Of a stretch of DNA of 49,018 nt, positions 1,561 to 46,952 are shown piece by piece. This stretch comes from a virus. The translations under genes and the position numbers were made by a program. The stretch covers positions 1-49,018 of the IMG/VR virus record IMGVR_UViG_3300046167_000757. The stretch is one strand, 5' to 3'. Under the pieces are notes generated by a model. The model was not told the DNA's origin. It searched no databases and saw only the letters and a program-made list of their open reading frames with translations. Each line of letters starts with the position of its first letter. Within the stretch, counting starts at the first letter, position 1.

Positions 1561-1575
1561 ATTAGTGGGGGTAAT
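1561..1575. promoter_or_regulatory. Dyad operator-like site, copy 1 (one mismatch)
   Basis: ATTAGTGGGGGTAAT matches ATTAG-N5-CTAAT with one change. It lies 8 bp before the start at 1584. It is followed by ATATA as at the copy at 21309. Confidence 0.55.
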
Positions 1576-1583
1576 ATATAGGC

Positions 1584-1862
1584 ATGTCCGATCACACTGA
1601 AGCTTATGCGGTAGAAGGGCTTTTAGAAGCCCTTGTTGGGATCGGACTAAGAGAAAGCGGCCAAGAGGTACTTGTGTACGATGCCGCACGCGTTGAAGAA
1701 CTATTGCAGAGCCGTGGTTACGAGCTCTCGTTGTGGGCGTTTTTACAGGAGCTAGATATAGCTGACCTGGGTGAACGCGCACCTATGTTTGTTTGGTTGG
1801 ACGACGATTTAAAAAATGAAATCACGGGCGGAACTACAGGAGGAAAGTATCGACTCCATTAA
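1584..1862 (+). CDS. Hypothetical acidic protein before the terminase genes
   Basis: This 92-residue acidic protein starts MSDHTEAYAVEGLLEALVG and is mostly predicted helix. Its only ribosome-site-like sequence, GGGGG, lies inside the dyad operator-like site just upstream, so binding there could affect both transcription and translation. The gene overlaps the small terminase start by 47 bp. No family recognised; position suggests a packaging or late-operon role. Confidence 0.6.
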   Translation: MSDHTEAYAVEGLLEALVGIGLRESGQEVLVYDAARVEELLQSRGYELSLWAFLQELDIADLGERAPMFVWLDDDLKNEITGGTTGGKYRLH

Positions 1863-2352
1863 AGATGGGGTTGATCTTACTCACACCGAATTCCAAGCAC
1901 ACATGCCTTACATGGGCGTGCATCATGGAACATTAACCGTGCAGCAGGAAAAGCTCGTCATGCTCGTTGCATCAGGAATGTCCATCAGGGCAGGGTCTCG
2001 TGCTGCAGGTTACAAGAACTACGACTGCGCGTTGAAAGCCATGCGTCGCCCCGAGATGAAAAAAGCGCTCGACTACTTCCGCGAACAAGCGCGGGAGACG
2101 GTGAAGTTCACAATTACCAATGCTCACGGCATGTATATGGAGGCGTACACCGCTTCATCAAATGCCACGGAGATGAAGAACACAACAGATTCACTGGTTA
2201 AGTTGCACGGCCTCGTGCAGCAGGAACCGCAAGCTCAGGTAAATGTGCAGATAAACGCAACGGCTAAGCAGCTGGAACGCCTGTCTGATGAGGAGCTGAT
2301 CAAGATCGCAGGTAAAGAAACGGCTTACTTGGAGCCATCTGTTGCCGAATGA
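1816..2352 (+). CDS. terS: Terminase small subunit (probable)
   Basis: A 178-residue protein directly before the large terminase. Around residues 38-75 it has a helix-turn-helix-like region (LTVQQEKLVMLVASGMS, then AGSRAAGYKNYDCALKAMRR) typical of small terminase DNA-recognition domains. The C-terminal half is helical, fitting oligomerisation. It would recognise the phage DNA and recruit the large subunit to the portal. The ATG at 1816 has no clear ribosome site; AGGAGGA occurs within the first codons, so an alternative internal start is possible. The stop overlaps the large subunit start. Confidence 0.7.
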   Translation: MKSRAELQEESIDSIKDGVDLTHTEFQAHMPYMGVHHGTLTVQQEKLVMLVASGMSIRAGSRAAGYKNYDCALKAMRRPEMKKALDYFREQARETVKFTITNAHGMYMEAYTASSNATEMKNTTDSLVKLHGLVQQEPQAQVNVQINATAKQLERLSDEELIKIAGKETAYLEPSVAE

Positions 2353-7988: not shown

Positions 7989-8120
7989 ATGGTAGTTACA
8001 GGGTATAAATGGCTTGCTTCATATTATTACCCACGCTAATATGATTTTTACGTCCATCCCTACGACATGGGGTCGGCCCGTAGCCGTAAAAAACGTACTC
8101 CTCGCCTGCAAAGGCGTTAA
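7989..8120 (+). pseudogene. Possible small basic gene interrupted by an in-frame TAA
   Basis: From ATG 7989 (GAGG upstream) the frame reads MVVTGYKWLASYYYPR, stops at TAA 8037-8039, and the same frame continues YDFYVHPYDMGSARSRKKR and TPRLQRR to a stop at 8118-8120. The continuation looks protein-like and basic, like the adjacent genes. The interrupting TAA lies within an operator-like dyad. It may be a real 16-residue gene, a damaged 43-residue gene, or chance. Confidence 0.3.
8026..8040. promoter_or_regulatory. Dyad operator-like site, copy 2 (one mismatch)
   Basis: ATTACCCACGCTAAT differs from the dyad at one position. It lies in the gap before the capsid gene, about 220 bp upstream of its start. 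Confidence 0.45.
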
Positions 8121-8261: not shown

Positions 8262-8672
8262 ATGGCTTTAACAAATTTCGGTACGCTTACAGGCGACCAA
8301 CTCCAAACTTGGAGCCGCGACTTCTGGAAAGTAGCTCGCAACCAATCTTTCATCAACCAGTTCGCTGGCACAGGTTCTAACGCTATGGTTCAGCGAGTAA
8401 CTGAACTTACTAAGAACCAGAAAGGCACTAAAGCTAACATCACTTTGCTAGCTGACATGACTTCTGACGGCATCACCGGTGACAATACTCTGGAAGGCAA
8501 CGAAGAAGCCCTTCGCGCGTATGACATCACCATTGAGCTGGATCAGCTGCGTTTCGCTAACCGCATCGCGGGCCGATTGCCGATCAGAAGACTGTTGTTA
8601 ACTTCCGTGAGCAATCTCGTGACGCACTTGCTTATGCAATGGCTGACCGTATGGACCAGTTGGCGTTCTTGA
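8262..8672 (+). CDS. Major capsid protein, N-terminal part (frameshifted)
   Basis: AGGAGG lies 8 bases before the ATG, the strongest ribosome site in this region, fitting a highly expressed coat protein. The sequence MALTNFGTLTGDQLQTWSRD, with KANITLLADMTSDGITGDN and ALRAYDITIELDQLRFANR, resembles N4 gp56/DUF4043-type major capsid proteins. About codon 105 the reading slips: RIADQKTVVNFREQSRDAL and AYAMADRMDQLAFLTL occur one base away, so residues after about 8575 in this frame are wrong. Expected full length is about 380-390 residues, ending at 9403. Confidence 0.8.
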   Translation: MALTNFGTLTGDQLQTWSRDFWKVARNQSFINQFAGTGSNAMVQRVTELTKNQKGTKANITLLADMTSDGITGDNTLEGNEEALRAYDITIELDQLRFANRIAGRLPIRRLLLTSVSNLVTHLLMQWLTVWTSWRS

Positions 8673-9073
8673 CTCTTGTCTGGTGTTGCTTACACTCAAC
8701 AAACAATGGTGCTCTGCGTACTACTTCTGGCACTGCTGGTCATGAGCTTGTCTGATCTGGAGTTTGCTTCAGACGTTTCTGCTCCTACACTGAGATCGTC
8801 ACCGTCGTTTGGGACGCTACTATCGTAGCTGGTGACACTACTGCATTACGCTAGCTGACAAGATCGGCTACGCACATCGTTAACTTGAAGGCTTATGCCA
8901 AAGATAACTACATCCGTGGTATTCGTGGTGCCGGTAACCAAGAAGCTGTTCCACATGTTCGTTACTCCACAGCAGATGGCTGCTCTGAAGCTAGACTCTG
9001 ACTTCCTTGCTAACGTCCGTAACGCTGGTGTTCGTGGCCCAACAACGAGCTGTTTGCTGGTTCTTCTAGCCTG
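8673..9073 (+). pseudogene. Major capsid protein, central part with multiple frame breaks
   Basis: Capsid-like sequence continues in changing frames: SGVAYTQQ, GALRTTSGTAG, SDLEFASDVSAP, EIVTVVWDATIVAGDT, LADKIGYAH, IVNLKAYAKDNYIRGIRGAG, VTPQQMAALKLDSDFLANVR and NELFAGSSSLMVDGVMVHEF. Five or more single-base changes are required to read through. The amino-acid content stays coherent between breaks, which argues for read errors or recent damage rather than an old pseudogene. Confidence 0.7.
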
Positions 9074-9403
9074 ATGGTTGACGGCGTCATGGTTCATGAG
9101 TTCCGACATGTCTTCTCAACTGAAGGCGCAACGTCTGGTGCTTCTGCCAACGCTGGTGCAGCTGGCTACAAGTGGGGTGCTAATGCCACCGTAGACGGAG
9201 CGCGAGCCCTGTTTGTCGGCGCTCAAGCACTGGCTATGGCTGACATCGGTCTGCCTGACATCGTAGAAGACACGTTCGACTACGGTAACCAGCTGGGTAT
9301 TTCGGTAGGCAAGATCTTCGGTCTTCGCAAGCCTAAGTACAACAGTGACATAAACGGCGGCGTAGAAGACTTTGGAGTCATCTGCCTCGATACCGCTCAG
9401 TAA
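9074..9403 (+). CDS. Major capsid protein, C-terminal part
   Basis: This frame gives the intact end of the coat protein: MVDGVMVHEFRHVF, then GAAGYKWGANATVDGARAL, VGAQALAMADIGLPDIVED, FDYGNQLGISVGKIFGLRK and the stop at 9403. DYGNQ...ISVGKIFG resembles the conserved C-terminal region of gp56-like capsid proteins. A strong intrinsic terminator follows 7 bases after the stop. Confidence 0.8.
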   Translation: MVDGVMVHEFRHVFSTEGATSGASANAGAAGYKWGANATVDGARALFVGAQALAMADIGLPDIVEDTFDYGNQLGISVGKIFGLRKPKYNSDINGGVEDFGVICLDTAQ

Positions 9404-9410
9404 AGTCCAT

Positions 9411-9433
9411 GGCCCCCTTCGGGGGGCCTTTTT
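9411..9433 (+). terminator. Rho-independent terminator after the capsid gene
   Basis: GGCCCCC-TTCG-GGGGGCC forms a 7-bp GC stem with a UUCG tetraloop, followed by TTTTT. It should reduce transcription past the capsid gene, raising coat protein relative to downstream genes. Confidence 0.9.
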
Positions 9434-9452
9434 CTCAAGGAGCTTTATACAA

Positions 9453-9839
9453 ATGAGAAACCCGGGCACTAGACGCAGACAAAGAAGGGCAGCTACTCGT
9501 TCTAAGGCGAGGGTTGAACCAAGATCACCTAAGAGGTACTCCAGCGGAATTGCAAGAGCTGCTGCTAGCTCTGGAAGTGCAAATACAAAGACTAATCGTA
9601 ACTACGATGCATCACCGGCACCCGAAACAAAAGGGGGCAAGCGTAATCCTAGGGCTGTCGCGTCAAGCAAGTCGCGAGACGCTACAGGCGGCGTGAAGAC
9701 CAAGGCCGGTACTTATAAGACGTTTAGAAAGGACTCCACAGCAGCGAAGGATTTTAGATCTGCTTTCGCAGCTGCAAGAAAGAAAGGCTACAAGACTTTT
9801 ACTTGGAACGGCAAAAAATACACCACTAAGACTAAATAG
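9453..9839 (+). CDS. Small basic virion-associated protein (128 aa)
   Basis: AAGGAG lies about 10 bases before the ATG at 9453, so the longer frame starting at 9372 across the terminator is not used. The protein begins MRNPGTRRRQRRAATRSKA, is strongly basic throughout and ends with DFRSAFAAARKKGYKTFTW and NGKKYTTKTK, a motif I recall from phage head-associated proteins in which the end forms a short beta hairpin. It lies between the capsid and the head-tail adaptor genes. A head decoration or DNA-binding role is an inference. Confidence 0.65.
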   Translation: MRNPGTRRRQRRAATRSKARVEPRSPKRYSSGIARAAASSGSANTKTNRNYDASPAPETKGGKRNPRAVASSKSRDATGGVKTKAGTYKTFRKDSTAAKDFRSAFAAARKKGYKTFTWNGKKYTTKTK

Positions 9840-9847
9840 GATTTTTC

Positions 9848-10201
9848 ATGAAGATTATCTGCAAGGAGCCTCTCAGAGTCGCCACTCTGTCTGGGGCCGT
9901 AGTGCTATTTGAAGCAGGCGTACCTCGCGAAGTAAGCGAGGAAATCGGGAAAGCAGCATTGGTTATGGGCGCGGACATCGTGTCGGACTCATTAAAAGAA
10001 ACGCCGGTAGCTGCACCGGAAGAAGAGACCGGGGCCGAGAAGACGTTGGCTCAAGTTATGGAAGATATTATCGAGGCGGCGAACCCTGGTGATTTCAAAG
10101 CAGATGGAACGCCAAAAGCTACCGTCGTAAACAAGTATGCAGGGCGTTCTGTCACTACGACAGAACGTGAAGAGGCTTGGGAGCAAGCTCTTAACTCTTA
10201 A
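9848..10201 (+). CDS. Hypothetical head protein (117 aa)
   Basis: Begins MKIICKEPLRVATLSGAVV, a compact beta-rich start, followed by an acidic linker (AAPEEETGAEKTL) and a helical end (VTTTEREEAWEQALNS). The first 45 residues resemble small head-completion or fibre-cap proteins in layout, and the second half could be a separate small domain. It is in the head-tail connector block, 8 bp after the previous gene. No family recognised with confidence. Confidence 0.6.
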   Translation: MKIICKEPLRVATLSGAVVLFEAGVPREVSEEIGKAALVMGADIVSDSLKETPVAAPEEETGAEKTLAQVMEDIIEAANPGDFKADGTPKATVVNKYAGRSVTTTEREEAWEQALNS

Positions 10202-10215
10202 AGCGAAGGGTCTAT

Positions 10216-10896
10216 ATGAGTGTCACAGTAGCAAGCGTTATAGACAGAGTGCAATCGGTGATACAGGACGCCAGTGGCATTCGATGGCCCGAGGCTGAGT
10301 TAATACTGTGGGTTAATGACGCGCAGCGTGAAATTGCGCTGATTAAACCTGACTCTACTGCTACTAACACCACCGTCACACTTGCCACTGGTACTAAGCA
10401 GGACATTCCTAGCTCAGGCAATCGGTTGCTTCGGGTTGTTCGAAACATGTCCGCTGCGTCAAATGGAACGGGCGGCAGAACTATTAGACTAGTTTCCGAG
10501 GAGATTCTGGACGCGCAGACCCCTAGCTGGCATGACCCGGCTGTAACTGGGGATGCAAAACACGGGACTCAAGTGAAGCATTATGTTTATAACGATGAGA
10601 ACCCCCGTAACTACTACGTCTATCCTGGGGTAAGTGGTAACGCTTACATCGAGATCGTTTACTCAGCAAACCCAGCGACTGTCGGCGCAAGTGACAACCT
10701 TGCAATACCTGACATCTTCGGCACAGCCGTAATGAATTACGTCTTATACATGGCTTTCATGAAAGATTCTGAGTACGCAGGTAACGCTCAGCGCGCAGGT
10801 GGTCACTACCAGTTGTTTACAACGGCTGTTGCGGGTAAGGGGCAGATCGATGTCGTGACGAGCCCTAACGCTGATAGCGCAAGGCCGGGAGTATAA
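10216..10896 (+). CDS. Head-tail adaptor protein (DUF6682-like)
   Basis: A 226-residue protein starting MSVTVASVIDRVQSVIQDA, with RWPEAELILWVNDAQREIA near residue 24. This opening helix pair is typical of podovirus gp4/gp11-type adaptors that join portal and tail. Later blocks include VYPGVSGNAYIEIVYSANP and FGTAVMNYVLYMAFMKDSE, characteristic of the DUF6682 family as I remember it. It stands directly before another tail-adaptor-like gene, 2 bp apart. Role: ring below the portal to which the nozzle binds. Confidence 0.7.
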   Translation: MSVTVASVIDRVQSVIQDASGIRWPEAELILWVNDAQREIALIKPDSTATNTTVTLATGTKQDIPSSGNRLLRVVRNMSAASNGTGGRTIRLVSEEILDAQTPSWHDPAVTGDAKHGTQVKHYVYNDENPRNYYVYPGVSGNAYIEIVYSANPATVGASDNLAIPDIFGTAVMNYVLYMAFMKDSEYAGNAQRAGGHYQLFTTAVAGKGQIDVVTSPNADSARPGV

Positions 10897-10898
10897 CT

Positions 10899-11585
10899 AT
10901 GGCTACAACTTACGAGACGCTGCTCCCTGAAATAATGCCGATGGTGCCGGGCTGTCCTGACACCCTAATAGAAAACAACATCCGCGCAGCGGCGATCGAG
11001 CTGTGCGAGAAAGCGCCTGTGTATCAGCAGGAGCTAGACCCTGTCACAACGGTCGCTAACATTTACGAGTACGACTTGGAGCCACCAAGCGGGGCGGTCA
11101 CCCATAAAATACTGTGGGTAACGCATCAAGGGCACGACTTAGAGCCTATCTCTACGGGATTGCTAGAGCAGCGTTTACCGAAGTGGCGGGACGCGAGTAA
11201 TGCGGGTACGCCAAAGTATTTTGTGAAGGTGACGCAGGCCGCGTTCTGGCTCGCTCCAGTCCCAAACGCCACAGAGTCACAGGCGGTCATCCTGCGAGCT
11301 CAACTGAAGCCAACATATACGTCTACCGCCTGTGATGACGGCGTTATGACTGATTACCGCGACGCAATTGTACAGGGGGCACTGTTCCGCCTGTTGCGGA
11401 TGCCCAGTAAGGATTGGACTGATTTTGGTGGCGCACAGGTATACGGCACCCTTTTTCAGCAGAGTATTCAAGAAGCCGAGCGCAGATCGCGCCATGAAGA
11501 TATGCCAATAGCCAGGAAGGTGAATTATGGAGGGTTATACCGCTCCCCCAAGCACTCAAAAAACCGATATGGAAGAGAAGTCTAG
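10899..11585 (+). CDS. Tail adaptor/tail tube-like structural protein (228 aa)
   Basis: Starts MATTYETLLPEIMPMVPGC, with ENNIRAAAIELCEKAPVYQ, a pattern found in podovirus proteins that follow the head adaptor. The C-terminal part is rich in Arg, Tyr and helix (QQSIQEAERRSRHED). It overlaps the next gene by 59 bp. Likely a structural component of the head-tail junction, assigned by position and N-terminal pattern only. Confidence 0.6.
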   Translation: MATTYETLLPEIMPMVPGCPDTLIENNIRAAAIELCEKAPVYQQELDPVTTVANIYEYDLEPPSGAVTHKILWVTHQGHDLEPISTGLLEQRLPKWRDASNAGTPKYFVKVTQAAFWLAPVPNATESQAVILRAQLKPTYTSTACDDGVMTDYRDAIVQGALFRLLRMPSKDWTDFGGAQVYGTLFQQSIQEAERRSRHEDMPIARKVNYGGLYRSPKHSKNRYGREV

Positions 11586-15189: not shown

Positions 15190-18100
15190 GTGGCAGAAGT
15201 CGAACGCGACATACCTCTGTCGGAGGTTTTTGCCAGATCTGTCCAAAGTGGCGCAGAAGGGCTAGCAGCCGACGTAGATTATTTTCAGGCACTCGCTCAG
15301 ACGCTGGTTGGAGCAGATGAAGCTGCTGCTGCGAACATATCGCAAGCCCGTCAAGCCGAAGAGTACACTTCATCAATCATGGGCGACATTCAGTCCTTCG
15401 AGGAGTTTCTCGATCAGCCGACTTTTGGCGGTTTAGTCACACAGGCATTCAAAGCGGGCGGGCAGGTTCTCCCTTCCGCAATCAGTTCGATTGCGGGCGC
15501 AGGGATAGGCGGCATCGCAGCAGTAGCGGGGCGAGGAGTCCTGTCAGCAACAGGTCGTAGCGCAGCCAAGCGCGTTGTTTCTGACTCGTTAAAAAGAGTA
15601 GCAAAAGGCGTCGCTACTCCAGATGAGAGCCAGCTTGCAGACGAGATGTATAAGTACTTTCGGCGCGGAGCACTCGGGGGCGCGTTTGCGTCTGAGTATG
15701 CGCCACTGTCGGGCAGCAATTTGTCCGAAGCATTGGATTCCGGCAAGGAGCTAGATCCAATGCAGGCATTCAGAGCGGCAGTTATTGGTGCGCCGCAGGC
15801 CGCTGTGGGAGTTTTGGGTGAGGTAGGTTTGCTCAAGCTGGTGGGGAACGTAGCCAGTAAACGCGCTGCCAAGGACGGCGGCATCTTCAATCGATTAGCT
15901 TCTGACATTGGCGGCGCTGTTGTAAAGGGCGGAGCAATCGAAGGTGCGACTGAGTTTGTGCAAGAAGGTATTAGCGTAGCTAATCGATTTGACTTAGATC
16001 CCGAGTTTACCGCCGAGGAAGCGAAGCTCCGTTTAGCTGAATCTGTGTTCGCTGGCATCATTGGTGGTGGTGCGGCAGGTGGAGCTGGTGGCACTTTGGG
16101 CGCAGCAGCCGGTGAGTCTAAGCGTATCTTTGCTAAGGCACAGGAAAAACTTTATGAGTCACAAGAACAGCGCGTTGATGAAGAGATTAACGCGGAGCAG
16201 TTTGGTGAAACCGATACGGGAGTAACCACCCCTGAGCCAAAGGTTGACCTTGATGCTCAGCTTGACGCTTTGCATGATAGTAACAGTACAAAGAACGCGG
16301 TTTGGATCGCGGGAGAGCAGGGCAGAGAGCGCTTCCCAGAAGACGGTCGATATGAAGAAGACGGCAAAGTCTTCTACGCTCGATACATACCGGGCCGCGG
16401 GACTATTGTTACTAAAAACGAAGCCTTAGCAGACGAGGTCGTTAAGTCGGGCGCTGACGAACAATCGCTAGCGGTAGCACTGGGGTATACGTCCGAGAAA
16501 GTAGATGGTGCTGACTTGGTGGTAGAGGCACTAGATTACAGAGGCAACGTAGTCTCTGCAGAGCTGACCACCGCAGCTAACCTCGAAGCAGCGAAAACTG
16601 CTGCAGAACAGCTTTCGCCCATCAACCAGTATCGCGTGGTATCAGCAGACCAAGCCCTCGAAGCTCGCAAACGAAAGGTTGAGGATGAAGGTCTCCGCTC
16701 GATGGAGATTGATGACGAGGTTGACGCGGCGTCTCAAGTTGACGAAGGCGAAGAGACTATTGTTGCTAGCTATGCTCGTCGCAATCCTGGCGAGCTATTT
16801 CCTGGCGAGCAGGCCGCGAGAGAAGCGTTTGTAACCGAGTTTGGTAACGACGCCCGCGTAGAGCAGTTTTCTCAGAAGCTGCTTGAAACTGCAGTTGCTG
16901 AGCAAAAAGCAAACCCAAGTTCGATCGTGTCCATTGTCGAGCGCGACGGTAAGTTCGAAGTTGTCCGACAGGATTTCGACAAGCTATATCGTTTTGAGCG
17001 TGAAGGGAAAAGCGAGCGACTCCCGCTGCAGCAGTTTCTTGAGCGACAGGTTGGATACGCGCAGGGAGCACCGGAGAAGTTTCGAAACGCTGTACTTGTT
17101 AGGCCAGACGGTACTACTGCCGAGGTCAGCCTTGTTTCTTTGATAAACGCCGGTCGCTTGCTTGTAGAGGGGCGAGAGGGCACTCAGTTTACGGGCGCAG
17201 GCGGAAACCTTAACGCGCAGCGCGCAGGTATGGCAGAGATGTTTGCGGATCTTGCCATTGAGGGATATGACCTGCAGGACTCCAACGGGGTTAGCCTGCT
17301 GAATCAGGCTAACTACGGCGCAAACGGCCAGTTCACCGGACAGCCTGTTACGGCTGCGGTAGTAAGCGGTAAACCTCAAAACATTAACTTCTTAATGAAC
17401 CGAACCCCGCGCGGCGCTGAGCTTGCGTCTGAGGTACAAGAAACTGTCAGCGAAGTTGGTCCAGTAAACGAGCGTCGAGACTTCGATCCTGAGCTAGACG
17501 CTCGTAACACACCCGAAGAAAACTCCAACGACGTAGCACAGCGAGCCGCTAGTGCGGAAATGGAAACCGAGGAGGTCTCCCTCCAAGAGCCTACTCGCGA
17601 CGAGCGTTTTGGTGGTAGACCAGATCGGCGCACAGGTGCCGCCCCGTCAACTCAGACACCTGTCGATCCAACGCGAGCAAATCGTCCTACAGTCACTTGG
17701 GAAAGCGACCCCCTGGTCAAGGCAATCCACGATCAGTTGCAGGAGCAGCTCAACCTAGAAGAGCGTCCCCTGATCGTTAGTTTTTCTATGCTGCAAAGTA
17801 TGTCTGACGCTGACATACGAAATCAGTATCCACCGAGTGTTGCAGCTGCGATCGTCAACATGCGTACACAGCTTGCAGCGAGATCCGCTGTCTACGGGTT
17901 TTACGACAGTCAGACCAACACAATTGTTGTAAAAGAGACCGGCAATTCTATGCAAGACGCGCTGGTTATAGCGCACGAACTGGGCCACGCGTTGTTTCGC
18001 CAAGAGCAAAGCAAAGGCATGGCTAACCCTGCACTGCGAAAGAGACTAGAAGAAGCCTACAAAAATAGTCCTAAATATAAGAGCTACGAAGCGTATCGAG

Positions 18101-21303: not shown

Positions 21304-21308
21304 ACTTT

Positions 21309-21323
21309 ATTAGTAGTGGTAAT
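21309..21323. promoter_or_regulatory. Dyad operator-like site, copy 3 (one mismatch)
   Basis: ATTAGTAGTGGTAAT lies in the gap after the lysis genes, 22 bp before the tail gene start at 21346. It is followed by ATAATG, like copy 1. Confidence 0.55.
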
Positions 21324-21345
21324 ATAATGTTGCAGAGGAATAACT

Positions 21346-31468: not shown

Positions 31469-31482
31469 CTTTGTCTGGTAAA

Positions 31483-31497
31483 ATTAGCTGAACTAAT
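31483..31497. promoter_or_regulatory. Dyad operator-like site, copy 4 (exact)
   Basis: ATTAGCTGAACTAAT is an exact match, in the gap between 31468 and 31532, 34 bp before the next start. Confidence 0.65.
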
Positions 31498-31531
31498 ACA
31501 CGGAACGTATTACAGGAAGGGCGAGTTAACA

Positions 31532-36012: not shown

Positions 36013-37059
36013 ATGGCATCAATCCGCAATCGGAACGGGCGGTTTTACGCCGAAGTTCGCAAGGCTGGGCATCCAGCGGTTAGCAGAACCTTTGACACTA
36101 AAACCGAAGCTCGTCAGTGGGCGAAGCGGACAGAAGCGGACATTGAGTCCGGCGCTTTGCTGGCACGCAAACAGAGATCTGAAAAGAAGACGACGTTCGG
36201 TCAGTTGATCGATCGCTACATTGAAGAAGTTCATCCTCTTAACAATTTTTGCGAGTCCAAACTTTCTACTTATCGATTGACGCAACGCGAAATCGGTCAC
36301 TACAAGCTGCATGAGATTACAGTAGAGAACGTGCTAGCTTACGGGCGGCAGCGCAGGCTTGGTACAGACGACAAGAAGGGTGTAGCACGAAGCACGCTTA
36401 ATACTCAGCTTCAATATATGGCGGAGCTCGTCGAGTTTGCTCGCATATCATGGGGCATGCCTTTTGAAACAAACCCCGTGAGAGACGCGCGCTACGCTCT
36501 CGCAAAGATGAAGTTGGTGGGTCCTAGTCGCAAGCGTGCACGTAGGCTCGCCGCTGGTGAGTACGAAAAGCTCATGGAAGCAGCCAAAGGGCACTGGATT
36601 TCACACTTCATTGTTATTGCCGTTCACAATGCTATGCGTCTTGCCGAGATTCATCGGCAGACGTGGGAAGACGTGGACTTTGAGAATCGCACGCTTACCA
36701 TTCGTGATCGTAAAGATCCGCAAGAGAAAGAAGGCAACGATGAAACAATCCCCATGCTCCATGAGACATGGACCCTGCTTCATGGTCTATGGTTGTGCAG
36801 CAAGCAGCGCGGAAGAGTTTTCTGCCAGGTTGCTACTGCGGGCGCTGTGTCAGATAAGTTTGCGGATGTAGCGGAGCTGGCGGGTTTTGGGGATTTGCAC
36901 TTTCACGATCTTCGGCACGAAGCGTGTAGTCGTTTGTTTGAACAAAAACTAACGATAGAACAAGTAGCGCTGGTGTCCGGCCATAAATCTTGGGACACAC
37001 TTAAACGCTACACTCAACTAAAGCCTGGGCAAGTTCTTGCTGCTATAGAGGACAGTTAG
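36013..37059 (+). CDS. int: Tyrosine recombinase integrase
   Basis: A 348-residue phage integrase. N-terminal arm-binding domain (MASIRNRNGRFYAEVRKAG), core-binding domain (residues about 60-165), and catalytic domain with R209 (NAMRLAEI), K234 (RDRKDP), H298-R301 (HDLRHEA), H324 (SGHKSW) and nucleophile Y333 (KRYTQL). All the expected catalytic residues are present, so it should be active. GAGGAAG lies about 3-9 bases before the ATG. It integrates and, with excisionase, removes the phage at the tRNA site. Its 3' end overlaps the opposite excisionase gene by 17 bp. Confidence 0.92.
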   Translation: MASIRNRNGRFYAEVRKAGHPAVSRTFDTKTEARQWAKRTEADIESGALLARKQRSEKKTTFGQLIDRYIEEVHPLNNFCESKLSTYRLTQREIGHYKLHEITVENVLAYGRQRRLGTDDKKGVARSTLNTQLQYMAELVEFARISWGMPFETNPVRDARYALAKMKLVGPSRKRARRLAAGEYEKLMEAAKGHWISHFIVIAVHNAMRLAEIHRQTWEDVDFENRTLTIRDRKDPQEKEGNDETIPMLHETWTLLHGLWLCSKQRGRVFCQVATAGAVSDKFADVAELAGFGDLHFHDLRHEACSRLFEQKLTIEQVALVSGHKSWDTLKRYTQLKPGQVLAAIEDS

Positions 37060-37252
37060 TCATTTTGGACTCTAAAAAAGCTGCGACTTCTGGGGTAGGG
37101 AACAGGTATTTCTTCCCGTGTTTTATGTGTGGCAGATCGAGTTTGCCCCGGTTTATTTGACTGTAGACCGATCTAGTTTCTACTTTTAACAGACTGGCTA
37201 TTTCTGGTAGGTCCATAAAAGGACCATACTTGGTTACTAGCAGCTCTTCCAT
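37043..37252 (-). CDS. xis: Excisionase-like helix-turn-helix protein
   Basis: 69 residues with a winged helix-turn-helix of the AlpA/MerR type: MDLPEIASLLKVETRSVYS then GKLDLPHIKHGKKYLFPTP. Such small proteins bend DNA at attP and control direction of recombination. GAGGAG stands 10 bases before the ATG. It is the last gene of the leftward operon and lies tail to tail with the integrase, so early transcription produces excisionase and also runs antisense into int. Confidence 0.7.
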   Translation of the reverse strand: MEELLVTKYGPFMDLPEIASLLKVETRSVYSQINRGKLDLPHIKHGKKYLFPTPEVAAFLESKMTNCPL

Positions 37253-37467
37253 AACTCAGACTCCTCAATTGCTCTTGCTTCGCAGGTCCAAGTTGATCTG
37301 TCGCCGCGAGTGATTACGCCTTTAACGCACATAGAGGGCAAAATTGATCGTGAGGTCCAGAATACGTTGCGGTGTTCTAAATTACTTCTGCTCCAAATTC
37401 GCAGTATGGCTTTTTTGGAGTGCTGCCAAATAACGCTCCAACTAGTAATCCTGTGTAGGTGCTTCAT
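37237..37467 (-). CDS. Small basic hypothetical protein (76 aa)
   Basis: Begins MKHLHRITSWSVIWQHSKK and has two Cys near the end (MCVKGVITRGDRSTWTCEA, LWKSC). It fills the gap between DUF3310 and the excisionase, overlapping both by 16-26 bp. GGAG is 8 bases before the ATG. No family recognised; coding status is moderately supported by its position and tight overlaps. Confidence 0.5.
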   Translation of the reverse strand: MKHLHRITSWSVIWQHSKKAILRIWSRSNLEHRNVFWTSRSILPSMCVKGVITRGDRSTWTCEARAIEESELWKSC

Positions 37468-37690
37468 TTTGTTGCTCCATCGTAGAGGTTATGAGTTTGT
37501 TTAAGTACCAATTTGCCTTGTTAAGGTCTTCGAGGGGTTTGCTTTTGTATTGATATCGCCAAAGATATTTCAGGCAGTTGCCTTTGCAATATCCTTGGAA
37601 TTCAATAGGAGACATGGATGCTTCGATTGCAGTGATACACTCGATGCTGCCAATGTTGTAGTGGGGAGGGTTTTCTACTGCGTCTGACAT
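37442..37690 (-). CDS. DUF3310 family protein
   Basis: 82 residues with the family pattern HYNIGSIECITAIEASMSP, then FQGYCKGNCLKYLWRYQYK and LEDLNKANWYLNKLI. DUF3310 proteins occur in many phages and are sometimes called nucleotide-kinase-like, but the function is not established. GAGGT lies 6 bases before the ATG; a dyad operator-like site lies 18 bp upstream. Confidence 0.8.
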   Translation of the reverse strand: MSDAVENPPHYNIGSIECITAIEASMSPIEFQGYCKGNCLKYLWRYQYKSKPLEDLNKANWYLNKLITSTMEQQNEAPTQDY

Positions 37691-37707
37691 TGCTACCTCA
37701 TGTAGTC

Positions 37708-37722
37708 ATTAGACCCACTAAT
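37708..37722. promoter_or_regulatory. Dyad operator-like site, copy 5 (exact)
   Basis: ATTAGACCCACTAAT (leftward sense ATTAGTGGGTCTAAT), 17 bp before the DUF3310 start, in the gap downstream of the repressor gene. Confidence 0.65.
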
Positions 37723-37773
37723 AATGATACATGTCATGCGACAGTGCAAGATATTAGCTGAGATAATTTAAAA

Positions 37774-38361
37774 TTAATTAATAATGTAGGTGAGTAGTGG
37801 CAGCAGCTTGGCTTCTAGTTCGTTGTTAGGTGGGCATTCGCTGATTTTTACTGCTTCAAGCGGGTCGCTATTTTTACGTTTGATGATATAAAATTCTGGT
37901 ACGCGACCGGGCGTTAGCCTGGGAGTTTTTAGTTTGAACATATTTGAGCACAGCGTCATTTGGCCTTTGAAGCCTATGGGGCGCAGGTCTTTTTCTAATC
38001 TAATAGCGCAGATTGCTTTGTAGTTTTCTTCAGCTACGGTTGCGACTATTCGTCTTCTATACGTAACTTCTGAGTAGTTGGCTGGTGTCTTGGGGTGAAT
38101 GTAAAGAACGGGGACTTTAAAACGGTCAGCTTCTATTGGGTTAAAGTTGGGGTCAATTTCGTGTGGGTCAACTTCAAGGAAGTTTGCTAGCTTCGCTATA
38201 GCTTCGCAGTTTAGCTCCGTTATGTTGTTTAAGTATTGACTAAACGCGCCTTGCGTCCACCCTAGTTTCTCTGCAGCCTGGGCTTGTGTTATTTCTAAGT
38301 CAAACTTTTTACTTTCCCAAATCCTTCGGAGATTTATTACCGCTTTTGGCAGGGTTCCCAT
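37774..38361 (-). CDS. Phage repressor, Cro/CI-type HTH
   Basis: 195 residues. Residues about 19-66 form an XRE helix-turn-helix (LEITQAQAAEKLGWTQGAF, SQYLNNITELNCEAIAKLA). The C-terminal 125 residues are not like the S24/LexA peptidase: no Ser or Lys catalytic motif is visible, though VPVLYIHPKT and RIVATVAEEN suggest a beta-rich dimerisation domain. AGGAGG lies 9 bases before the ATG. It is a good candidate to bind the ATTAG-N5-CTAAT sites. Being in the leftward operon, it may act as an early regulator instead. Confidence 0.75.
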   Translation of the reverse strand: MGTLPKAVINLRRIWESKKFDLEITQAQAAEKLGWTQGAFSQYLNNITELNCEAIAKLANFLEVDPHEIDPNFNPIEADRFKVPVLYIHPKTPANYSEVTYRRRIVATVAEENYKAICAIRLEKDLRPIGFKGQMTLCSNMFKLKTPRLTPGRVPEFYIIKRKNSDPLEAVKISECPPNNELEAKLLPLLTYIIN

Positions 38362-38761
38362 GTATATATCCTCCTGACATACACGTCGTTTCTATGTTCT
38401 TGGCGATTTCTTTAAAAGTAATACCTCGTCTTTGTAGCTCGCCGCTATTGAGAGGGCTATTAATTAGGCTAGGGTCAATAAGCGCTGCGTGCTTGCCCCA
38501 TCCAATTATTAGCGTGGTTAATTGTCCGTAGTTTTGCATCTTTGTCAACCATATGCGTTGTTGTTCTGTAGTGCAATAAGTGACAATTGTACTTTCTCGC
38601 TTTGGAAGTTTGATGTACTTGTATTCAACCCATAAGGAACCGGCGGGTCCACAATAGTAAGCGTCGGGAACGCCGCCGGTATATGTATCGTGGATTTTCC
38701 ATCGATACAGTTCAGCTGGAAGGTGCCGATGCACGGCTTTTATGAAGCCGTGCTCGTTCAC
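38309..38761 (-). CDS. VRR-NUC-like PD-(D/E)XK nuclease
   Basis: 150 residues starting with GTG. The key region is GVPDAYYCGPAGSLWVEYK followed by Tyr-Ile-Lys, with D and E-x-K catalytic residues as in VRR-NUC and phage Holliday-junction-type nucleases. It overlaps the repressor start by 53 bp. The probable role is processing of recombination or replication intermediates. The C-terminal 50 residues are basic and flexible. Confidence 0.65.
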   Translation of the reverse strand: MNEHGFIKAVHRHLPAELYRWKIHDTYTGGVPDAYYCGPAGSLWVEYKYIKLPKRESTIVTYCTTEQQRIWLTKMQNYGQLTTLIIGWGKHAALIDPSLINSPLNSGELQRRGITFKEIAKNIETTCMSGGYIHGNPAKSGNKSPKDLGK

Positions 38762-41206: not shown

Positions 41207-41371
41207 TTATTTTCCAATTACTTTCAATGTTTTTTCAGGCACTTCGACAATGACTTCTTCGGGGTCAGGGTCTTCGCCATCGATGTATTCGTCAGCAGGA
41301 GTTAGTTTTAAAAGGAGAGTGCGGCCATCCCATTCGTAGTCATCGAGGTGAAGCTCGACTTTGATCCGCAT
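41207..41371 (-). CDS. Small acidic hypothetical protein (54 aa)
   Basis: Begins MRIKVELHLDDYEWDGRTL and has an acidic second half (DEYIDGEDPDPEEVIVEV). AGGAGG lies 6 bases before the ATG at 41371, an excellent ribosome site, and a dyad operator-like site is 22 bp upstream. It is probably the first gene of a subunit with the SNF2-like helicase, whose start is 17 bp downstream. No family recognised. Confidence 0.7.
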   Translation of the reverse strand: MRIKVELHLDDYEWDGRTLLLKLTPADEYIDGEDPDPEEVIVEVPEKTLKVIGK

Positions 41372-41392
41372 GTGTCCTCCTGACGGTTATGT

Positions 41393-41407
41393 ATTAGCCA
41401 GACTAAT
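41393..41407. promoter_or_regulatory. Dyad operator-like site, copy 6 (exact)
   Basis: ATTAGCCAGACTAAT, 21 bp before the start of the small gene at 41371 and just after the GP88 gene stop. Confidence 0.65.
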
Positions 41408-41408
41408 A

Positions 41409-43460: not shown

Positions 43461-44228
43461 TTAGCTAATACCCCATTCACATTCGGGATTATCGCCTTTT
43501 CCATAGGAGCACCATCGACATGCTGATTTTGAGGGCGACGGCTCAAAGTCGAATTCACTTGTCATGCGAGTTGCGCGAGCGTGGAAGCCAGGAAGAAACT
43601 GTGTTGCTTCTGCTCTTGTAAAGGTTTTGATGGTTGTTTCACCTTTGTCTAAGTACCACAGTTCGGTTTGTACAAACTCAATTGATGGGTATCTGACAAA
43701 AGTTGCAATGGCATAAAGTAAAGCCTGCTGGCTGTGACCAATCTCATTGCCCCATTTTTTGCCTGTCTTGTAGTCAATGACTCGTGCGCTTTGTTCGTCT
43801 TCTCTTACTAAAGCGTCGAGTTTGATACGAGCCCAAGTTCTACTTTCCATCCATCCACATATTTCCCATTCTTCTGTAAAAGCCCAGTCACCTTCGAGTT
43901 CTACTTTTGCTTCAGCAAACAATGCTCGTAGCGTTTCGAAGTCATCCTTAAACTTTTCTAAGTTACTTGGGAATTCACCTAACGTGCCGTTTACATAGTC
44001 TTCAGCTTCTTGGTGTATTTGCGTGCCTCGATCTGCAGCAGGGCTTGAAGGCTCTTTAATTTTTTTGACACGAGACAGAAACGTGCGGTGAGGGCACTCT
44101 TCAAATACTTTAAGTGCTGAGTATGACCATGCACGGACAGGGCCTAAAGGTGGCTTATCTGACATGATTTTGTCAGCGTCAGGGCGAGTCGATTGTGTCT
44201 TGGCAACGGTCATATTGAAGTCCGACAT
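43461..44228 (-). CDS. Cas4/RecB-like PD-(D/E)XK exonuclease
   Basis: 255 residues of the PDDEXK_1 family. SYSALKVFEECPHRTFLSR opens the domain, RGTQIHQEAEDYV gives the H motif, ARIKLDALVRE and VIDYKTGKKW give D and E/D-x-K, and CRWCSYGKGDNPEC provides cysteines that with the early Cys could bind a 4Fe-4S cluster. It probably degrades or recombines DNA ends in replication. A dyad operator-like site lies 10 bp upstream of the start. Confidence 0.85.
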   Translation of the reverse strand: MSDFNMTVAKTQSTRPDADKIMSDKPPLGPVRAWSYSALKVFEECPHRTFLSRVKKIKEPSSPAADRGTQIHQEAEDYVNGTLGEFPSNLEKFKDDFETLRALFAEAKVELEGDWAFTEEWEICGWMESRTWARIKLDALVREDEQSARVIDYKTGKKWGNEIGHSQQALLYAIATFVRYPSIEFVQTELWYLDKGETTIKTFTRAEATQFLPGFHARATRMTSEFDFEPSPSKSACRWCSYGKGDNPECEWGIS

Positions 44229-44238
44229 AATGTCAGGT

Positions 44239-44253
44239 ATTAGTGTAACTAAT
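44239..44253. promoter_or_regulatory. Dyad operator-like site, copy 7 (exact)
   Basis: ATTAGTGTAACTAAT overlaps the primase-helicase stop codon and ends 10 bp before the nuclease start. Confidence 0.65.
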
Positions 44254-46732
44254 TAGCACGGGTACGCAAGAGCGCATCGTCTTCATTAGTGAAATAAGCC
44301 TTAATAATCGACTGTAATTGCATCTGATTAGCCTTCCAGTCCACAACTACGCCGCGGATGGGGTGTGCGTCACGGCCTGCATCTGCTGCTCGTTTGCGTT
44401 GCACAGACACACGGTTTCTTGTTAATCGCTTTTTAAAGTCAATCGGTGACAGAGGAGGGCGTGCTTCAGTTAGTACGTTGAATACGACTCGTAGTGCATC
44501 AGTAGGGATGATGCTGTAGTTTTTAGCGTGAGCATCTGCAACCCAGCTTTTAACAAAGCGTTGCGCTGCGTCAATTTCTCCTGAGTTCATAACATTTGTA
44601 ATGCGTATATCTAATACGTCGTTGAACCAATCTAAAGATCCCTCTCGCAGTGCTTGGCAAAACTCTTCGAATACGCTGAGTGATGCAGTCTTCATGAGTC
44701 GTTTTGCTTCGTTGTCTACTGGCATTCGCACAAGCGATTCGTTGTATGCAAAAGTTTCTAGTGCTCCAGCGAAATGAAGCAATTCTTTTGGGATATTTTT
44801 GAACTCCGTTACTATTTCTGGGTGCTTATCTAGCAGTTTTTCTTCTTGCCGAGGCGCGATGTTGTATCGTCTATCGCCAGGCTCGATGCGAATTGCGTCT
44901 ACATGGTTCGTCAAAAATATAAAACTGGTGTAGTTTGGGACTTCAACTTGGTTCGATCGCATGCGTCGAATTGTTACTGAAGGCTCAGTGATTTGATTCT
45001 TTAGCTTGTTTGCGACCTTTTGTGCAGCTGTGCTGCTTGCCATATGAAACTCATCTACTACACACACTAATGCGCGCTGCAGGTATGAGTTAAATTGCTC
45101 TTCAAGGTTTTCTAAAGTTTTGACGGGAGCTTGTTCTTCACCGAACAATGGACGAAGTACTTGATAAGCAAACACGCCTTTCCCGGTGCCAGGCACTCCG
45201 CTTAGTACCCAAGCAGTTTTTGCTTTTTCTTTGGTTTGATAGATGTAAGCAAGCCAATTGAAGAAGCGTTCTACTTCTTGCTGTCCATCTCCGAGGATGT
45301 GCCGCATGAGTTTAAAAATAGTGGGGCATTTGTTTTCTATTGTTGTTACATAGCCAAGCTCGATGGGGGCTTCAGGTGTAATGGCGTTGTTCATATACAT
45401 TGTACGTTTGAATGTGTTGATGCGGTAAGGCATCGTAGATAAATCGACGGTCGGTCCAGTGTTTGTTGGATCAAATGACATGTCTGCATCTGGTACAAAG
45501 TCTGGGGCAGGGCGTCCATGTGTTCTCATAAAATCTTCAATCGACTGTCGCGATGTAGGCTTTAGCACCTCAAACTCAGTTATGTTTGGGTTGTAAATAC
45601 CGTTCCAATACGTGTCAGTATTGAAGTCTCGGAAGACAACTGGATATTCTGGTCGGCCTTCTTTTTCCATCTCGCTAGCAAACGTGTCGAAGATCGACTG
45701 ATAGAAATCGCTGTCGGCTTGTTCAATGAGAAATATTGGCTCGCCCTTAAAGTTGTGCATATAAATCGGGTTATCAAGATTGAACCAATACGCTTTGCTA
45801 TCGCCGCCGTTTATGTTGCAGCGGATGTACGGCGCGTTTGTTGTATCTGCAATCACAATAGACATGCGGTCTGGGTTTAACAGCACTTCTTGGGGTTGCC
45901 GATCGATGTCCATTACTTTGATTTTTTCAGTAACCTTTTTAAGCCCGCTGGTTTCTCGAAGCTTGTTCTTGATGACTTGGCTTCTTTCATAAACTTGTTG
46001 AGGGCTGAGATTTGCAACAAGTGCAGCAAGCTGCAGCTGATCGTGTTGTTTGCTAACTAATACAATTCGATCGTCCGCACTGTTAAATGGATCGTTCTTA
46101 TTGTCGGTAAAGGTTGGGGGCGCGATAAAGATAAGTTTGCTGTTGTCGGCTACTGATATATCAAGCGGGTACTTTAGAGACTGTCCGTTAACGCTTAGCT
46201 CTAACTGATCTGCGAATAACGTAGTCGTGTAGTTAACGTGCTGCAGCCAAAGCTTGATTGTTTTTGCAGCTAACGGTACATCCAGCATCATAATGATGTG
46301 CATGCTTATTGCGTCGTTTTTAAAGCCTATGCTTGATGAGGCTTGTGCTACGTAGCTTACGTTCTGCAACTCAGCTGGCATGCATCTCATTAATGCTTCA
46401 GCTATTTGCTTGAACTTCTCACTGTCAATATTCCAGTAAGGCGCAAAGCTGCTGCCAGGGATCTTTATTCCGTCGAAGTCTAAAACCAATAGTCCGCTTG
46501 GCGATGCTTTGTCACTTGCGCCTGCACGGCTTTCTTCTATTAGTTCTCGCTTGAGGTTGCCTTTTAGTAAACAGTTTCCAATAGCTGCGTTATCAACAAC
46601 CGAGCTGTACAGCTCGTCTATTGACGTTACGTCATACTGATAGGAGTTTACTTTTTTGACGTGTGGGTAGGGAGTAAATTTATTTTCACCGTCGTAGTGT
46701 TTGCTCAGTCTAAGGGCCGTTGGCAGCCCCAA
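44249..46732 (-). CDS. Primase-helicase (D5/DUF5906-like SF3 helicase)
   Basis: 827 residues. The N-terminal half has LVLDFDGIK and SSIGFKNDAISMHIIMMLD, consistent with an archaeo-eukaryotic-type primase region. The helicase has Walker A GVPGTGKG (512-519), Walker B VCVVDEFH and the SF3-like FIFLTNHVDAIRIEPGDRR. It would unwind and prime phage DNA. The start is TTG 46732 with AAGG upstream; an ATG 16 bases earlier is in another frame and ends quickly, so the start is not certain. Confidence 0.8.
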   Translation of the reverse strand: MGLPTALRLSKHYDGENKFTPYPHVKKVNSYQYDVTSIDELYSSVVDNAAIGNCLLKGNLKRELIEESRAGASDKASPSGLLVLDFDGIKIPGSSFAPYWNIDSEKFKQIAEALMRCMPAELQNVSYVAQASSSIGFKNDAISMHIIMMLDVPLAAKTIKLWLQHVNYTTTLFADQLELSVNGQSLKYPLDISVADNSKLIFIAPPTFTDNKNDPFNSADDRIVLVSKQHDQLQLAALVANLSPQQVYERSQVIKNKLRETSGLKKVTEKIKVMDIDRQPQEVLLNPDRMSIVIADTTNAPYIRCNINGGDSKAYWFNLDNPIYMHNFKGEPIFLIEQADSDFYQSIFDTFASEMEKEGRPEYPVVFRDFNTDTYWNGIYNPNITEFEVLKPTSRQSIEDFMRTHGRPAPDFVPDADMSFDPTNTGPTVDLSTMPYRINTFKRTMYMNNAITPEAPIELGYVTTIENKCPTIFKLMRHILGDGQQEVERFFNWLAYIYQTKEKAKTAWVLSGVPGTGKGVFAYQVLRPLFGEEQAPVKTLENLEEQFNSYLQRALVCVVDEFHMASSTAAQKVANKLKNQITEPSVTIRRMRSNQVEVPNYTSFIFLTNHVDAIRIEPGDRRYNIAPRQEEKLLDKHPEIVTEFKNIPKELLHFAGALETFAYNESLVRMPVDNEAKRLMKTASLSVFEEFCQALREGSLDWFNDVLDIRITNVMNSGEIDAAQRFVKSWVADAHAKNYSIIPTDALRVVFNVLTEARPPLSPIDFKKRLTRNRVSVQRKRAADAGRDAHPIRGVVVDWKANQMQLQSIIKAYFTNEDDALLRTRAN

Positions 46733-46751
46733 GATAAGTAACCTTCATAGT

Positions 46752-46952
46752 TTAGATTAGTCCCGCTAATATGGTTAGGCAGACTTTTTTTTCCCGAGGC
46801 TCTCGGGTTATTTCTACATTAGAGTCTGCTTCGAATACGATTCTGACTTGGTTTCGGTCTATCCGACCTACCGTCACAGTGGCGACATGCTCACCATCTT
46901 TTGAGAGAGTGACTTTATCGTTGACTTTCCTTGTCAATACGAGTCGTGACAT
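46752..46952 (-). CDS. csrA: CsrA-like RNA-binding regulator
   Basis: 66 residues: MSRLVLTRKVNDKVTLSKD at the start matches the LVLTRKxGxxI opening of CsrA/RsmA, and RNQVRIVFEADSNVEITRE matches the RGNQVRIGIEAP...VHRE core. CsrA is a dimer that binds GGA in RNA hairpins near ribosome sites. Length is near the family's usual 61. The C-terminal region lengthens to KKVCLTILAGLI. It starts one base after the polymerase stop, so is coupled. It may redirect host translation. Confidence 0.8.
   Translation of the reverse strand: MSRLVLTRKVNDKVTLSKDGEHVATVTVGRIDRNQVRIVFEADSNVEITREPREKKVCLTILAGLI
46756..46770. promoter_or_regulatory. Dyad operator-like site, copy 8 (exact)
   Basis: ATTAGTCCCGCTAAT lies in the last codons of the csrA-like gene, 23 bp before the primase-helicase start. 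Confidence 0.65.

What the first reader, a model, noticed from the sequence alone, without database searches (positions are those of the whole stretch)
1561..46770. Dispersed 15-bp dyad ATTAG-N5-CTAAT, probable repressor operators or stoperators
Exact copies are at 15970, 31483, 37708, 41393, 44239 and 46756; one-mismatch copies at 1561, 8026 and 21309; a weaker one at 42599. A fixed ten-base pattern is expected about 0.05 times in 49 kb. All but the copy at 15970 lie in or at the edge of an intergenic gap, and most are within 35 bp of a start codon, in both arms. The half-sites are conserved and the spacer is not, which favours a dimeric DNA-binding protein over an RNA structure. Mycobacteriophage L5 has dispersed repressor stoperators, a known precedent. 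The HTH protein at 37774 is the natural candidate. Chance matching is unlikely; the ligand is inference.
Basis: partly seen in the sequence, partly recalled or inferred. Interest (0 to 1): 0.88.

Follow-up and report, generated by a model that had tools for sequence, protein, structure and literature searches.

The report
Genome-wide operators of phage repressor
A temperate phage carries about eleven copies of one short mirror-symmetric DNA switch, mostly near the starts of genes in both halves of its genome, and comparison with relatives indicates that one lambda-type repressor protein uses them to silence many of its genes at once.

Summary
In detail: ATTAG-N5-CTAAT occurs 6 times exactly (shuffle mean 0.01). 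A weight matrix from relatives supports 11 window sites (a twelfth, 5093, is borderline) and rejects 42599. The unit is a 17-bp dyad, TATTAGY-NNN-RCTAATA, so the spacer ends are conserved. In 67 related contigs 361 sites score high, against 3 in reversed sequence; 71% of 192 non-redundant sites lie within -20..60 bp of a start codon, random places 9.7%. TTG sits at one fixed offset in 31 of 136, suggesting a promoter whose -10 box is the right half-site. Best explanation: operators of the HTH protein at 37774, whose DNA-binding domain matches lambda CI. Relatives with altered recognition helices carry altered half-sites before the same genes. In a Motiliproteus genome 17 of 17 near-matches in 4.2 Mb fall within one 60-kb phage-gene stretch. 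They look like promoter operators rather than L5-type stoperators. Dispersed operators are known (P1, L5, SPbeta); a symmetric lambda-type set kept across this divergent group is a new variant. Binding and repression are inferred, not measured.

The parts
1560..1576 (.). operator site TATTAGTGGGGGTAATA, 7 bp before ORF 1584-1862
   Evidence: score 22.2, none as high in 40 shuffles
8025..8041 (.). operator site TATTACCCACGCTAATA in the gap before the head-protein ORF 8262-8672 (220 bp from its start)
   Evidence: score 20.9; PHROG major head protein
15969..15985 (.). intragenic site TATTAGCGTAGCTAATC in virion-protein gene 15190-20352
   Evidence: score 18.7; kept in 4 of 8 aligned relatives (G001, G025, G010, G011), absent from G008, G013, G018, G026
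21308..21324 (.). operator site TATTAGTAGTGGTAATA, 21 bp before ORF 21346-21723
   Evidence: score 21.3
31482..31498 (.). operator site AATTAGCTGAACTAATA, 33 bp before ORF 31532-31732
31471..31499 (+). example of the proposed superimposed promoter: TTGTCT (31471-31476), 17-bp spacer, TAATAC (31494-31499)
   Evidence: read from the sequence; family-wide offset statistics
37707..37723 (.). operator site CATTAGACCCACTAATA, 16 bp before the DUF3310 ORF (37442-37690, minus)
37752..37768 (.). second site TATTAGCTGAGATAATT, 45 bp from the previous one, between the HTH stop and the DUF3310 ORF
38507..38523 (.). weaker site TATTAGCGTGGTTAATT, 145 bp upstream of the HTH gene; a site at the same offset in G001, G002, G020, G003, G025, L109, L114
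   Evidence: (E=0.05)
41392..41408 (.). operator site TATTAGCCAGACTAATA, 20 bp before the conserved 54-aa ORF 41207-41371 (minus) that precedes the helicase
44238..44254 (.). operator site TATTAGTGTAACTAATT, 9 bp before the PD-(D/E)XK nuclease ORF 43461-44228 (minus), overlapping the stop of the primase ORF
46755..46771 (.). operator site GATTAGTCCCGCTAATA before the primase-helicase ORF 44249-46732 (minus)
37774..38361 (-). proposed repressor: lambda CI-like HTH domain (residues about 6-76) plus a C-terminal domain of unknown fold
36013..37059 (+). tyrosine integrase (temperate lifestyle)
37043..37252 (-). small HTH_17 protein, possibly an excisionase (inference from size and place)

Best explanation
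The dyads are operators. A dimer of the HTH protein encoded at 37774-38361 (minus) places one lambda CI-type recognition helix in each 7-bp half of TATTAGY-NNN-RCTAATA. At most sites the downstream half-site forms the -10 box of a sigma70-type promoter with a short leader (about 10-20 nt at the modal distance), so repressor and RNA polymerase exclude each other. About eleven such places over both arms, before replication genes and virion genes alike, are shut directly in the lysogen rather than through a cascade. Shown by computation: the dyad, its placement, its conservation, its co-occurrence and covariation with the HTH gene, and its confinement to one phage-gene stretch in a bacterial genome. 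Inferred: binding by this protein, the promoters themselves, repression rather than activation, and the role in lysogeny.
For: Chance excluded. 361 sites in 67 contigs (1.29 Mb) vs 3 in reversed sequence; 192 non-redundant: 159 in gaps, 8 at edges, 25 inside genes, random places 7.8/2.2/90%; 71% within -20..60 bp of a start vs 9.7%. A de novo scan of every 5-mer dyad with N0-12 puts this dyad first in 48 of 69 contigs with unique HTH sequences. TTG at one offset in 31 of 136 (other offsets mean 2.7, maximum 9), 17 bp before TAATxx. HTH domain profile hits lambda CI (3kz3 8.6e-9, 1lmb 4.3e-7); Foldseek ranks 1, 2 and 4 are lambda CI, rank 3 a lambda-186 hybrid. Contigs covering the locus: 59 of 65 with the HTH have at least 2 sites, 0 of 6 without; for those fetched by primase or helicase instead of by the HTH, 16 of 18 vs 0 of 6 (rows). 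Clade with helix QSAFSHY[LI][TV] has TA[T/G]TAG..CTA[A/C]TA sites before the same genes. Motiliproteus: 17 of 17 matches within one 60-kb stretch with phage genes; Endozoicomonas: 17 of 20 on one 76-kb contig with phage genes. Integrase gene in the window.
Against: No binding or expression data. Many contigs were fetched because they hold the HTH, so 46 of 46 site-bearing contigs with HTH is partly built in; the Pam3 gp34-like protein is also in 46 of 46 (7 of 9 site-poor), and integrase and HTH_17 genes (42 of 46 vs 2 of 9) and GP88 (33 of 46 vs 0 of 9) associate nearly as strongly as the HTH (46 of 46 vs 4 of 9). Site-poor contigs are also the more divergent ones. The HTH gene lies in the same direction and cluster as the replication genes; its own upstream site is weak (E=0.05) and only 16 of 62 class A loci have one of score>=12 within 380 nt. 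TTG at the fixed offset is in 31 of 136 only, and TAATAT is largely the dyad itself, hence not independent evidence of a promoter. L144 has the HTH but no site scoring 16; HTH-bearing L175 and L177 have none either. The window's integrase has no homologue in the Motiliproteus or Endozoicomonas stretches at E 1e-3. C-terminal domain and induction are unexplained.
Confidence: 0.8

Rival explanations
1. The HTH protein binds the dyads but is a lytic-cycle regulator (Cro-like timer or co-ordinator), not the lysogeny repressor.
For: Its gene sits within the replication cluster in the same direction; its own upstream site is weak; G012, G013 and G014 carry a 120-aa version with little C-terminal domain.
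Against: Sites are spread over the phage-gene stretch of a bacterial genome; the window phage has an integrase; no other CI-like protein was seen among the window proteins scanned, though not all were scanned.
Confidence: 0.15
2. Stoperators: sites that block elongating RNA polymerase inside transcription units, as in mycobacteriophage L5.
For: Sites between co-directional genes; 25 of 192 inside genes; the 15969 site is kept in 4 of 8 aligned relatives.
Against: The dyad is symmetric, clustered just before start codons and has TTG at a fixed offset in part of the cases. L5-type sites are asymmetric, oriented and mostly not promoter-associated (PMC6550527 passages).
Confidence: 0.08
3. Binding site of a host regulator, or simply a host promoter element.
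For: The right half resembles a -10 box.
Against: All 17 Motiliproteus matches lie in the phage-gene stretch, none elsewhere; three genomes with a related phage locus but no HTH or a divergent one (L174, L175, L178) have 1, 1 and 0 matches in 2.8, 3.4 and 6.4 Mb; the upstream half is not needed for a -10 box.
Confidence: 0.03
4. RNA stem-loops before start codons (translational control).
For: Placement near starts; ATTAG and CTAAT can pair.
Against: At the next pair inward the mismatch C-A (35) is commoner than the pair T-A (19) and about equal to T-G (37) in transcript orientation: the symmetry of a DNA site, no pairing.
Confidence: 0.02

Closest known systems
Lambda CI repressor and its operators
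   Same: DNA-binding domain matches lambda CI by sequence profile and fold; 17-bp dyad over a -10-like box; the lambda operator is also 17 bp and its half-site also begins TAT (recalled)
   Different: About 11-20 dispersed, mostly single operators instead of triplets at two promoters (lambda side recalled); no recognised CI/LexA C-terminal domain in the window protein; HTH gene lies in the replication cluster
Phage P1 C1 repressor operators
   Same: One repressor, 22 operators dispersed over the phage genome repressing lytic genes (PMC8546580 passages)
   Different: P1 operator is an asymmetric 17-mer and P1 lysogens are plasmids (same passages and abstract). Relatedness of the two proteins was not tested here
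Mycobacteriophage L5 / cluster A repressor and stoperators
   Same: Many dispersed sites whose motif diverges together with the repressor (PMC6550527 passages)
   Different: Asymmetric, oriented, mostly not at promoters; bound by a monomeric repressor (PMC9283540, title and start of abstract in the listing). Here symmetric and before start codons
SPbeta MrpR and the SPBRE element
   Same: Ten binding peaks of one master repressor in promoter regions of one prophage, 15-bp motif (PMC10516654 passages)
   Different: MrpR has a tyrosine-recombinase fold; here a lambda CI-like HTH

Membership tests
Lambda CI-type (Cro/C1 HTH) repressors | HTH domain homologous to CI | tested here: met
   Pfam HTH_3 2.1e-6; PDB profile hits 3kz3 8.6e-9, 1lmb 4.3e-7; Foldseek ranks 1, 2, 4 are lambda CI
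Lambda CI-type (Cro/C1 HTH) repressors | Dyad operator of about 17 bp overlapping a promoter | tested here: inconclusive
   17-bp dyad met; promoter predicted from geometry only
Lambda CI-type (Cro/C1 HTH) repressors | C-terminal S24/LexA-like dimerisation and self-cleavage domain | tested here: not met
   No S24 hit for the window protein at E<=1, no PDB match of note, low-confidence model; relatives L175 and L177 hit Peptidase_S24 below its cut-off (2.7e-4, 1.8e-3)
Lambda CI-type (Cro/C1 HTH) repressors | Binds its operators and represses transcription | not testable with these tools
   No bench data
L5-type stoperators | Asymmetric site | tested here: not met
   Site is a dyad
L5-type stoperators | Most sites not at promoters | tested here: inconclusive
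   71% within -20..60 bp of a start, TTG offset in 31 of 136; promoters not mapped
L5-type stoperators | Blocks elongation | not testable with these tools
   Needs transcript data
Dispersed multi-operator prophage silencing (P1, SPbeta kind) | Many sites of one repressor over the prophage, before many units | tested here: inconclusive
   Site distribution fits; the binder is inferred
Temperate phage | Integrase | tested here: met
   PF00589 1.3e-21 at 36013-37059. A related phage-gene stretch lies within a 1.54-Mb Motiliproteus contig, but without a homologue of this integrase

The most novel reading that the evidence does not exclude
Operator specificity is frozen across an otherwise fast-diverging phage group. 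Lambda-type repressors whose DNA-binding domains range down to 40% identity, and whose C-terminal parts are very different or missing, keep the same 17-bp operator, presumably because ten or more operators would have to change together. These phages, from different bacteria, would then form one very broad cross-immunity group, with the TA[T/G]TAG and TAT[A/T]AG variants as escapes through mixed half-sites.
Probability: 0.35. Interest if true: 0.7.

Novelty: new variant of a known kind. Interest (0 to 1): 0.55.

Why it matters
It names a likely immunity repressor and its regulon for a family of temperate phages; the repressor has no relative among 50,697 phage records (tblastn, E 1e-5; very near records may be left out of that search). 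It gives a sequence handle (repressor plus dispersed operators) for predicting cross-immunity and lysogeny from metagenomes, and a natural series of recognition helices with their half-sites. It makes testable whether many operators lock repressor specificity. A genome-sequenced strain, Motiliproteus coralliicola C34, carries such a phage-gene stretch, so tests are possible.

Tried and rejected
RNA hairpin: rejected by the pair table. Stoperators: symmetry and placement against. Site at 42599: rejected (E=8.2). A third dyad class in L144: an artefact of a tandem repeat inside a gene. Class B register: first appeared as ATTAG-N8-CTAAT or TAGTA-N4/N7-TACTA; upstream regions of orthologous genes resolve it to a 17-bp dyad with a changed third base. 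The tally contains overlapping registers, so its class B counts and Fisher values are inflated and not used. The recognition-helix change responsible was not found: class A members also carry S38 or H42 or both, and L162 has Thr at position 45 with class A sites. C-terminal fold: low-confidence model, no PDB relative, no S24 in the window protein. The HTH domain profile in GTDB genome contigs confirmed none of 92 candidate stretches, a false negative, since the helicase search then found HTH-bearing loci there. More lysogens by helicase: 2 of 274 genomes, the Motiliproteus genome itself and one weaker hit not followed. DNA-level matches to phage records: none. Literature string search for ATTAGNNNNNCTAAT: 0 papers; a motif written another way would be missed.

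Rows dropped before counts: the 67 contigs are 63 HTH-bearing ones outside the altered-site clade and L144, plus four HTH-less fragments (G021, G022, G023, G032) added because they hold the motif; motif-poor HTH-less G028 and G030 were left out there. One search left out G030 and sites without a start within -15..60. Duplicate contigs were removed by hand (13 ids; 22 ids), and by length (9 kb, 13 kb) and coverage of the locus.
Full report
Observation. The window is one IMG/VR virus record of 49,018 bases with no near match among phage records. ATTAG-N5-CTAAT is present six times at the stated places. A weight matrix from relatives gives 10 window sites E<=0.03 against 40 dinucleotide shuffles and two at E=0.05 (38507 and 5093); the 42599 copy fails at 8.2. 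I accept 38507, because relatives have a site at the same offset before the HTH gene, and leave 5093, inside a portal-like gene, open. The matrix left the window out but kept its near relatives G001 and G002, so it is not fully independent.

What the site is. From 229 non-redundant sites the unit is TATTAGY-NNN-RCTAATA: positions 2-6 are 92-99% conserved, T1 74%, and position 7 is C or T in 91%. The sites were picked with at least 9 of the 10 core letters, so the core figures are partly by construction; T1, Y7 and their partners are the informative additions. In 67 contigs (1.29 Mb, the window among them; choice of contigs told under Tried and rejected) 361 sites score 16 or more, against 3 in the reversed sequences.

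Where it lies. Of 192 non-redundant sites 159 are in gaps, 8 at gene edges, 25 inside genes; random places fall 7.8, 2.2 and 90%. 137 (71%) lie within -20 to 60 bp of a start codon against 9.7% of random places; 91 of 192 lie 20-39 bp before one. Helicase, nuclease, primase and DUF3310 orthologues keep the site at similar distances in many relatives (whose output was cut), but not in all: in the window's subgroup the site sits before a conserved small ORF upstream of the helicase, and several primase genes have none.

Promoter geometry. Oriented by the downstream gene, positions 13-18 read TAATAT in 59 of 136, TAATAA in 21 and TAATAC in 14. This likeness to a -10 box is largely the dyad itself, since the flank is about as conserved on the left, so it is no independent proof. 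The independent sign is TTG at offset -10 in 31 of 136, against a mean of 2.7 at other offsets (maximum 9), a 17-bp spacer; shared ancestry of orthologous sites may inflate it. Most sites lack an exact TTG. If these are promoters, the site covers the -10 box and much of the spacer, the position of an operator that excludes RNA polymerase.

DNA, not RNA. In transcript orientation the bases at positions 7 and 11 are C-A 35, C-G 33, T-A 19, T-G 37. A hairpin would disfavour C-A; a symmetric protein site predicts C-A equal to T-G, as seen.

The binder. The protein at 37774-38361 has an HTH_3 domain. A profile of 14 such domains finds lambda CI as the best solved structures (3kz3 8.6e-9, 1lmb 4.3e-7), and the predicted structure, confident only for about residues 1-76, finds lambda CI at ranks 1, 2 and 4. 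Gln26 and Gln37, invariant in the 18 sequences, correspond to lambda Gln33 and Gln44, which contact the adenine at position 2 of the lambda operator (recalled, not looked up); A2 is 98% here. Among 69 contigs with unique HTH sequences the scan of all 5-mer dyads put this dyad first in 48 (37 as ATTAG-N5, 9 as TATTA-N7, 2 as ATATT-N9); the other 21 include the altered-site clade, short contigs and some longer ones with only near-matches. Contigs that cover the locus: 59 of 65 with the HTH have at least two sites, 0 of 6 without it. Many of these were fetched because of the HTH. Taking only the rows fetched by primase or helicase, it is 16 of 18 against 0 of 6. In a stricter set of 55 contigs the HTH is in 46 of 46 site-bearing and 4 of 9 site-poor ones (which include L102, L144, L175 and L177, all with divergent HTH or sites). 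It is not the only protein in 46 of 46: the Pam3 gp34-like protein is too, but also in 7 of 9 site-poor ones. Integrase and HTH_17 proteins follow at 42 of 46 and 2 of 9, GP88 at 33 of 46 and 0 of 9. These contigs are related and not independent trials, so co-occurrence alone does not single out the HTH; homology and covariation do more.

Covariation. G027, G029 and G031 have no ATTAG-N5-CTAAT; their HTH reads LGWTQSAFSHYLTEIT instead of LGWTQGAFSQYLNNIT. Before the same genes they carry 17-bp dyads such as TAGTAGCATTACTACTA and TATTAGCTATACTACTA, a changed third base in one or both halves; L099, L101 and L102 agree. In the 8 contigs of this clade the G variant has 44 matches at up to two mismatches (T variant 29; G variant in reversed sequence 0), in the class A contigs 191 against 409 for T (near-duplicate contigs and overlapping registers included). 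Endozoicomonas loci (L172, L179) carry TATAAGC/TATTAGC mixed half-sites with yet another helix. The change of site with change of helix supports the HTH as reader, though S38 and H42 alone do not predict the class.

Bacterial genomes. A helicase profile found 13 loci in GTDB genomes. In Motiliproteus coralliicola C34, 17 of 17 matches (TATTAGCNNNGCTAATA, up to one mismatch) in 4.2 Mb lie between 1,362,364 and 1,422,531 of one 1.54-Mb contig; the reversed pattern has 2 matches. That stretch encodes homologues of the terminase, portal, PolA, primase, helicase and HTH, but none of the window's integrase at E 1e-3; with a looser pattern the fetched 80 kb holds 20 sites (16 in gaps, 4 inside genes, one of these outside the 60 kb), reversed 0. 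In the Endozoicomonas assembly 17 of 20 distinct sites lie on one 76-kb contig with phage genes. Genomes of L174 and L178 (no HTH found) and L175 (divergent HTH) have 1, 0 and 1 matches. Two MAGs show clustering on the phage contig, 8 of 12 and 4 of 7, with 2 and 3 control matches, but their binning is uncertain.

Mechanism. Shown: a 17-bp dyad, position before genes, covariation, confinement to phage-gene stretches. Inferred: binding of the HTH dimer, promoters, steric repression, maintenance of lysogeny. Autoregulation is suggested by a weak site about 145 bp before the HTH start in the window's subgroup and nearer ones in G004, G005, G007, G008, G024, L168, L169 and L172, but only 16 of 62 class A loci have one of score 12 or more; 41 of 62 have one just after the HTH gene. 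How the prophage is induced is open: the C-terminal part has no known fold, differs between subgroups and is short in G012-G014, while L175 and L177 hit Peptidase_S24 weakly.

Known systems. P1 C1 has 22 dispersed asymmetric operators (PMC8546580, passages). Cluster A phages have 20-30 asymmetric, oriented sites, most of them stoperators not at promoters (PMC6550527, passages). SPbeta MrpR shows ten peaks at SPBRE elements in promoter regions (PMC10516654, passages). The present case would work like P1 and SPbeta, with a lambda-type reader and symmetric operators: a new variant of a known kind. The repressor has no relative among 50,697 phage records at E 1e-5.

Limits. All gene calls are from my own simple caller; start codons, and hence distances, carry some error. 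The intragenic site at 15969 is kept in G001 (97% identical protein), G025, G010 and G011, while G008, G013, G018 and G026 lack it; its role is not explained.

Noticed in passing
window 15969-15985: Intragenic copy in the 1720-aa virion-protein gene; kept in G001, G025, G010 and G011 (two spacer codons vary in G010), absent in four other relatives. Possible road-block or internal promoter.
   Followed up: partly
contig G018 (loci L056-L058), contig positions 5805, 7870, 38674, 41608, 42436: A second, unrelated dyad ATAGA-N4-TCTAT occurs 5 times (expected 0.06); no explanation.
   Followed up: no
window 67, 9087, 31569: TCATG-N3-CATGA dyad three times (expected 0.05); also among the top three dyads in G002, G003 and L114.
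   Followed up: no
window 37774-38361 and relatives: Repressors with similar HTH domains carry very different or shortened C-terminal parts, as if sensor modules were swapped.
   Followed up: partly
L144 about 10279-10600: Tandem repeat of 117-bp units inside the ORF 8959-11682.
   Followed up: no
window 41207-41371: Conserved 54-aa ORF of unknown function directly after an operator site and before the helicase in the window's subgroup.
   Followed up: no
L168, L169: Two phage contigs with the same layout of sites and genes are binned into MAGs named Rhodospirillaceae and Planctomycetaceae, so host labels from MAGs are unreliable here.
   Followed up: no
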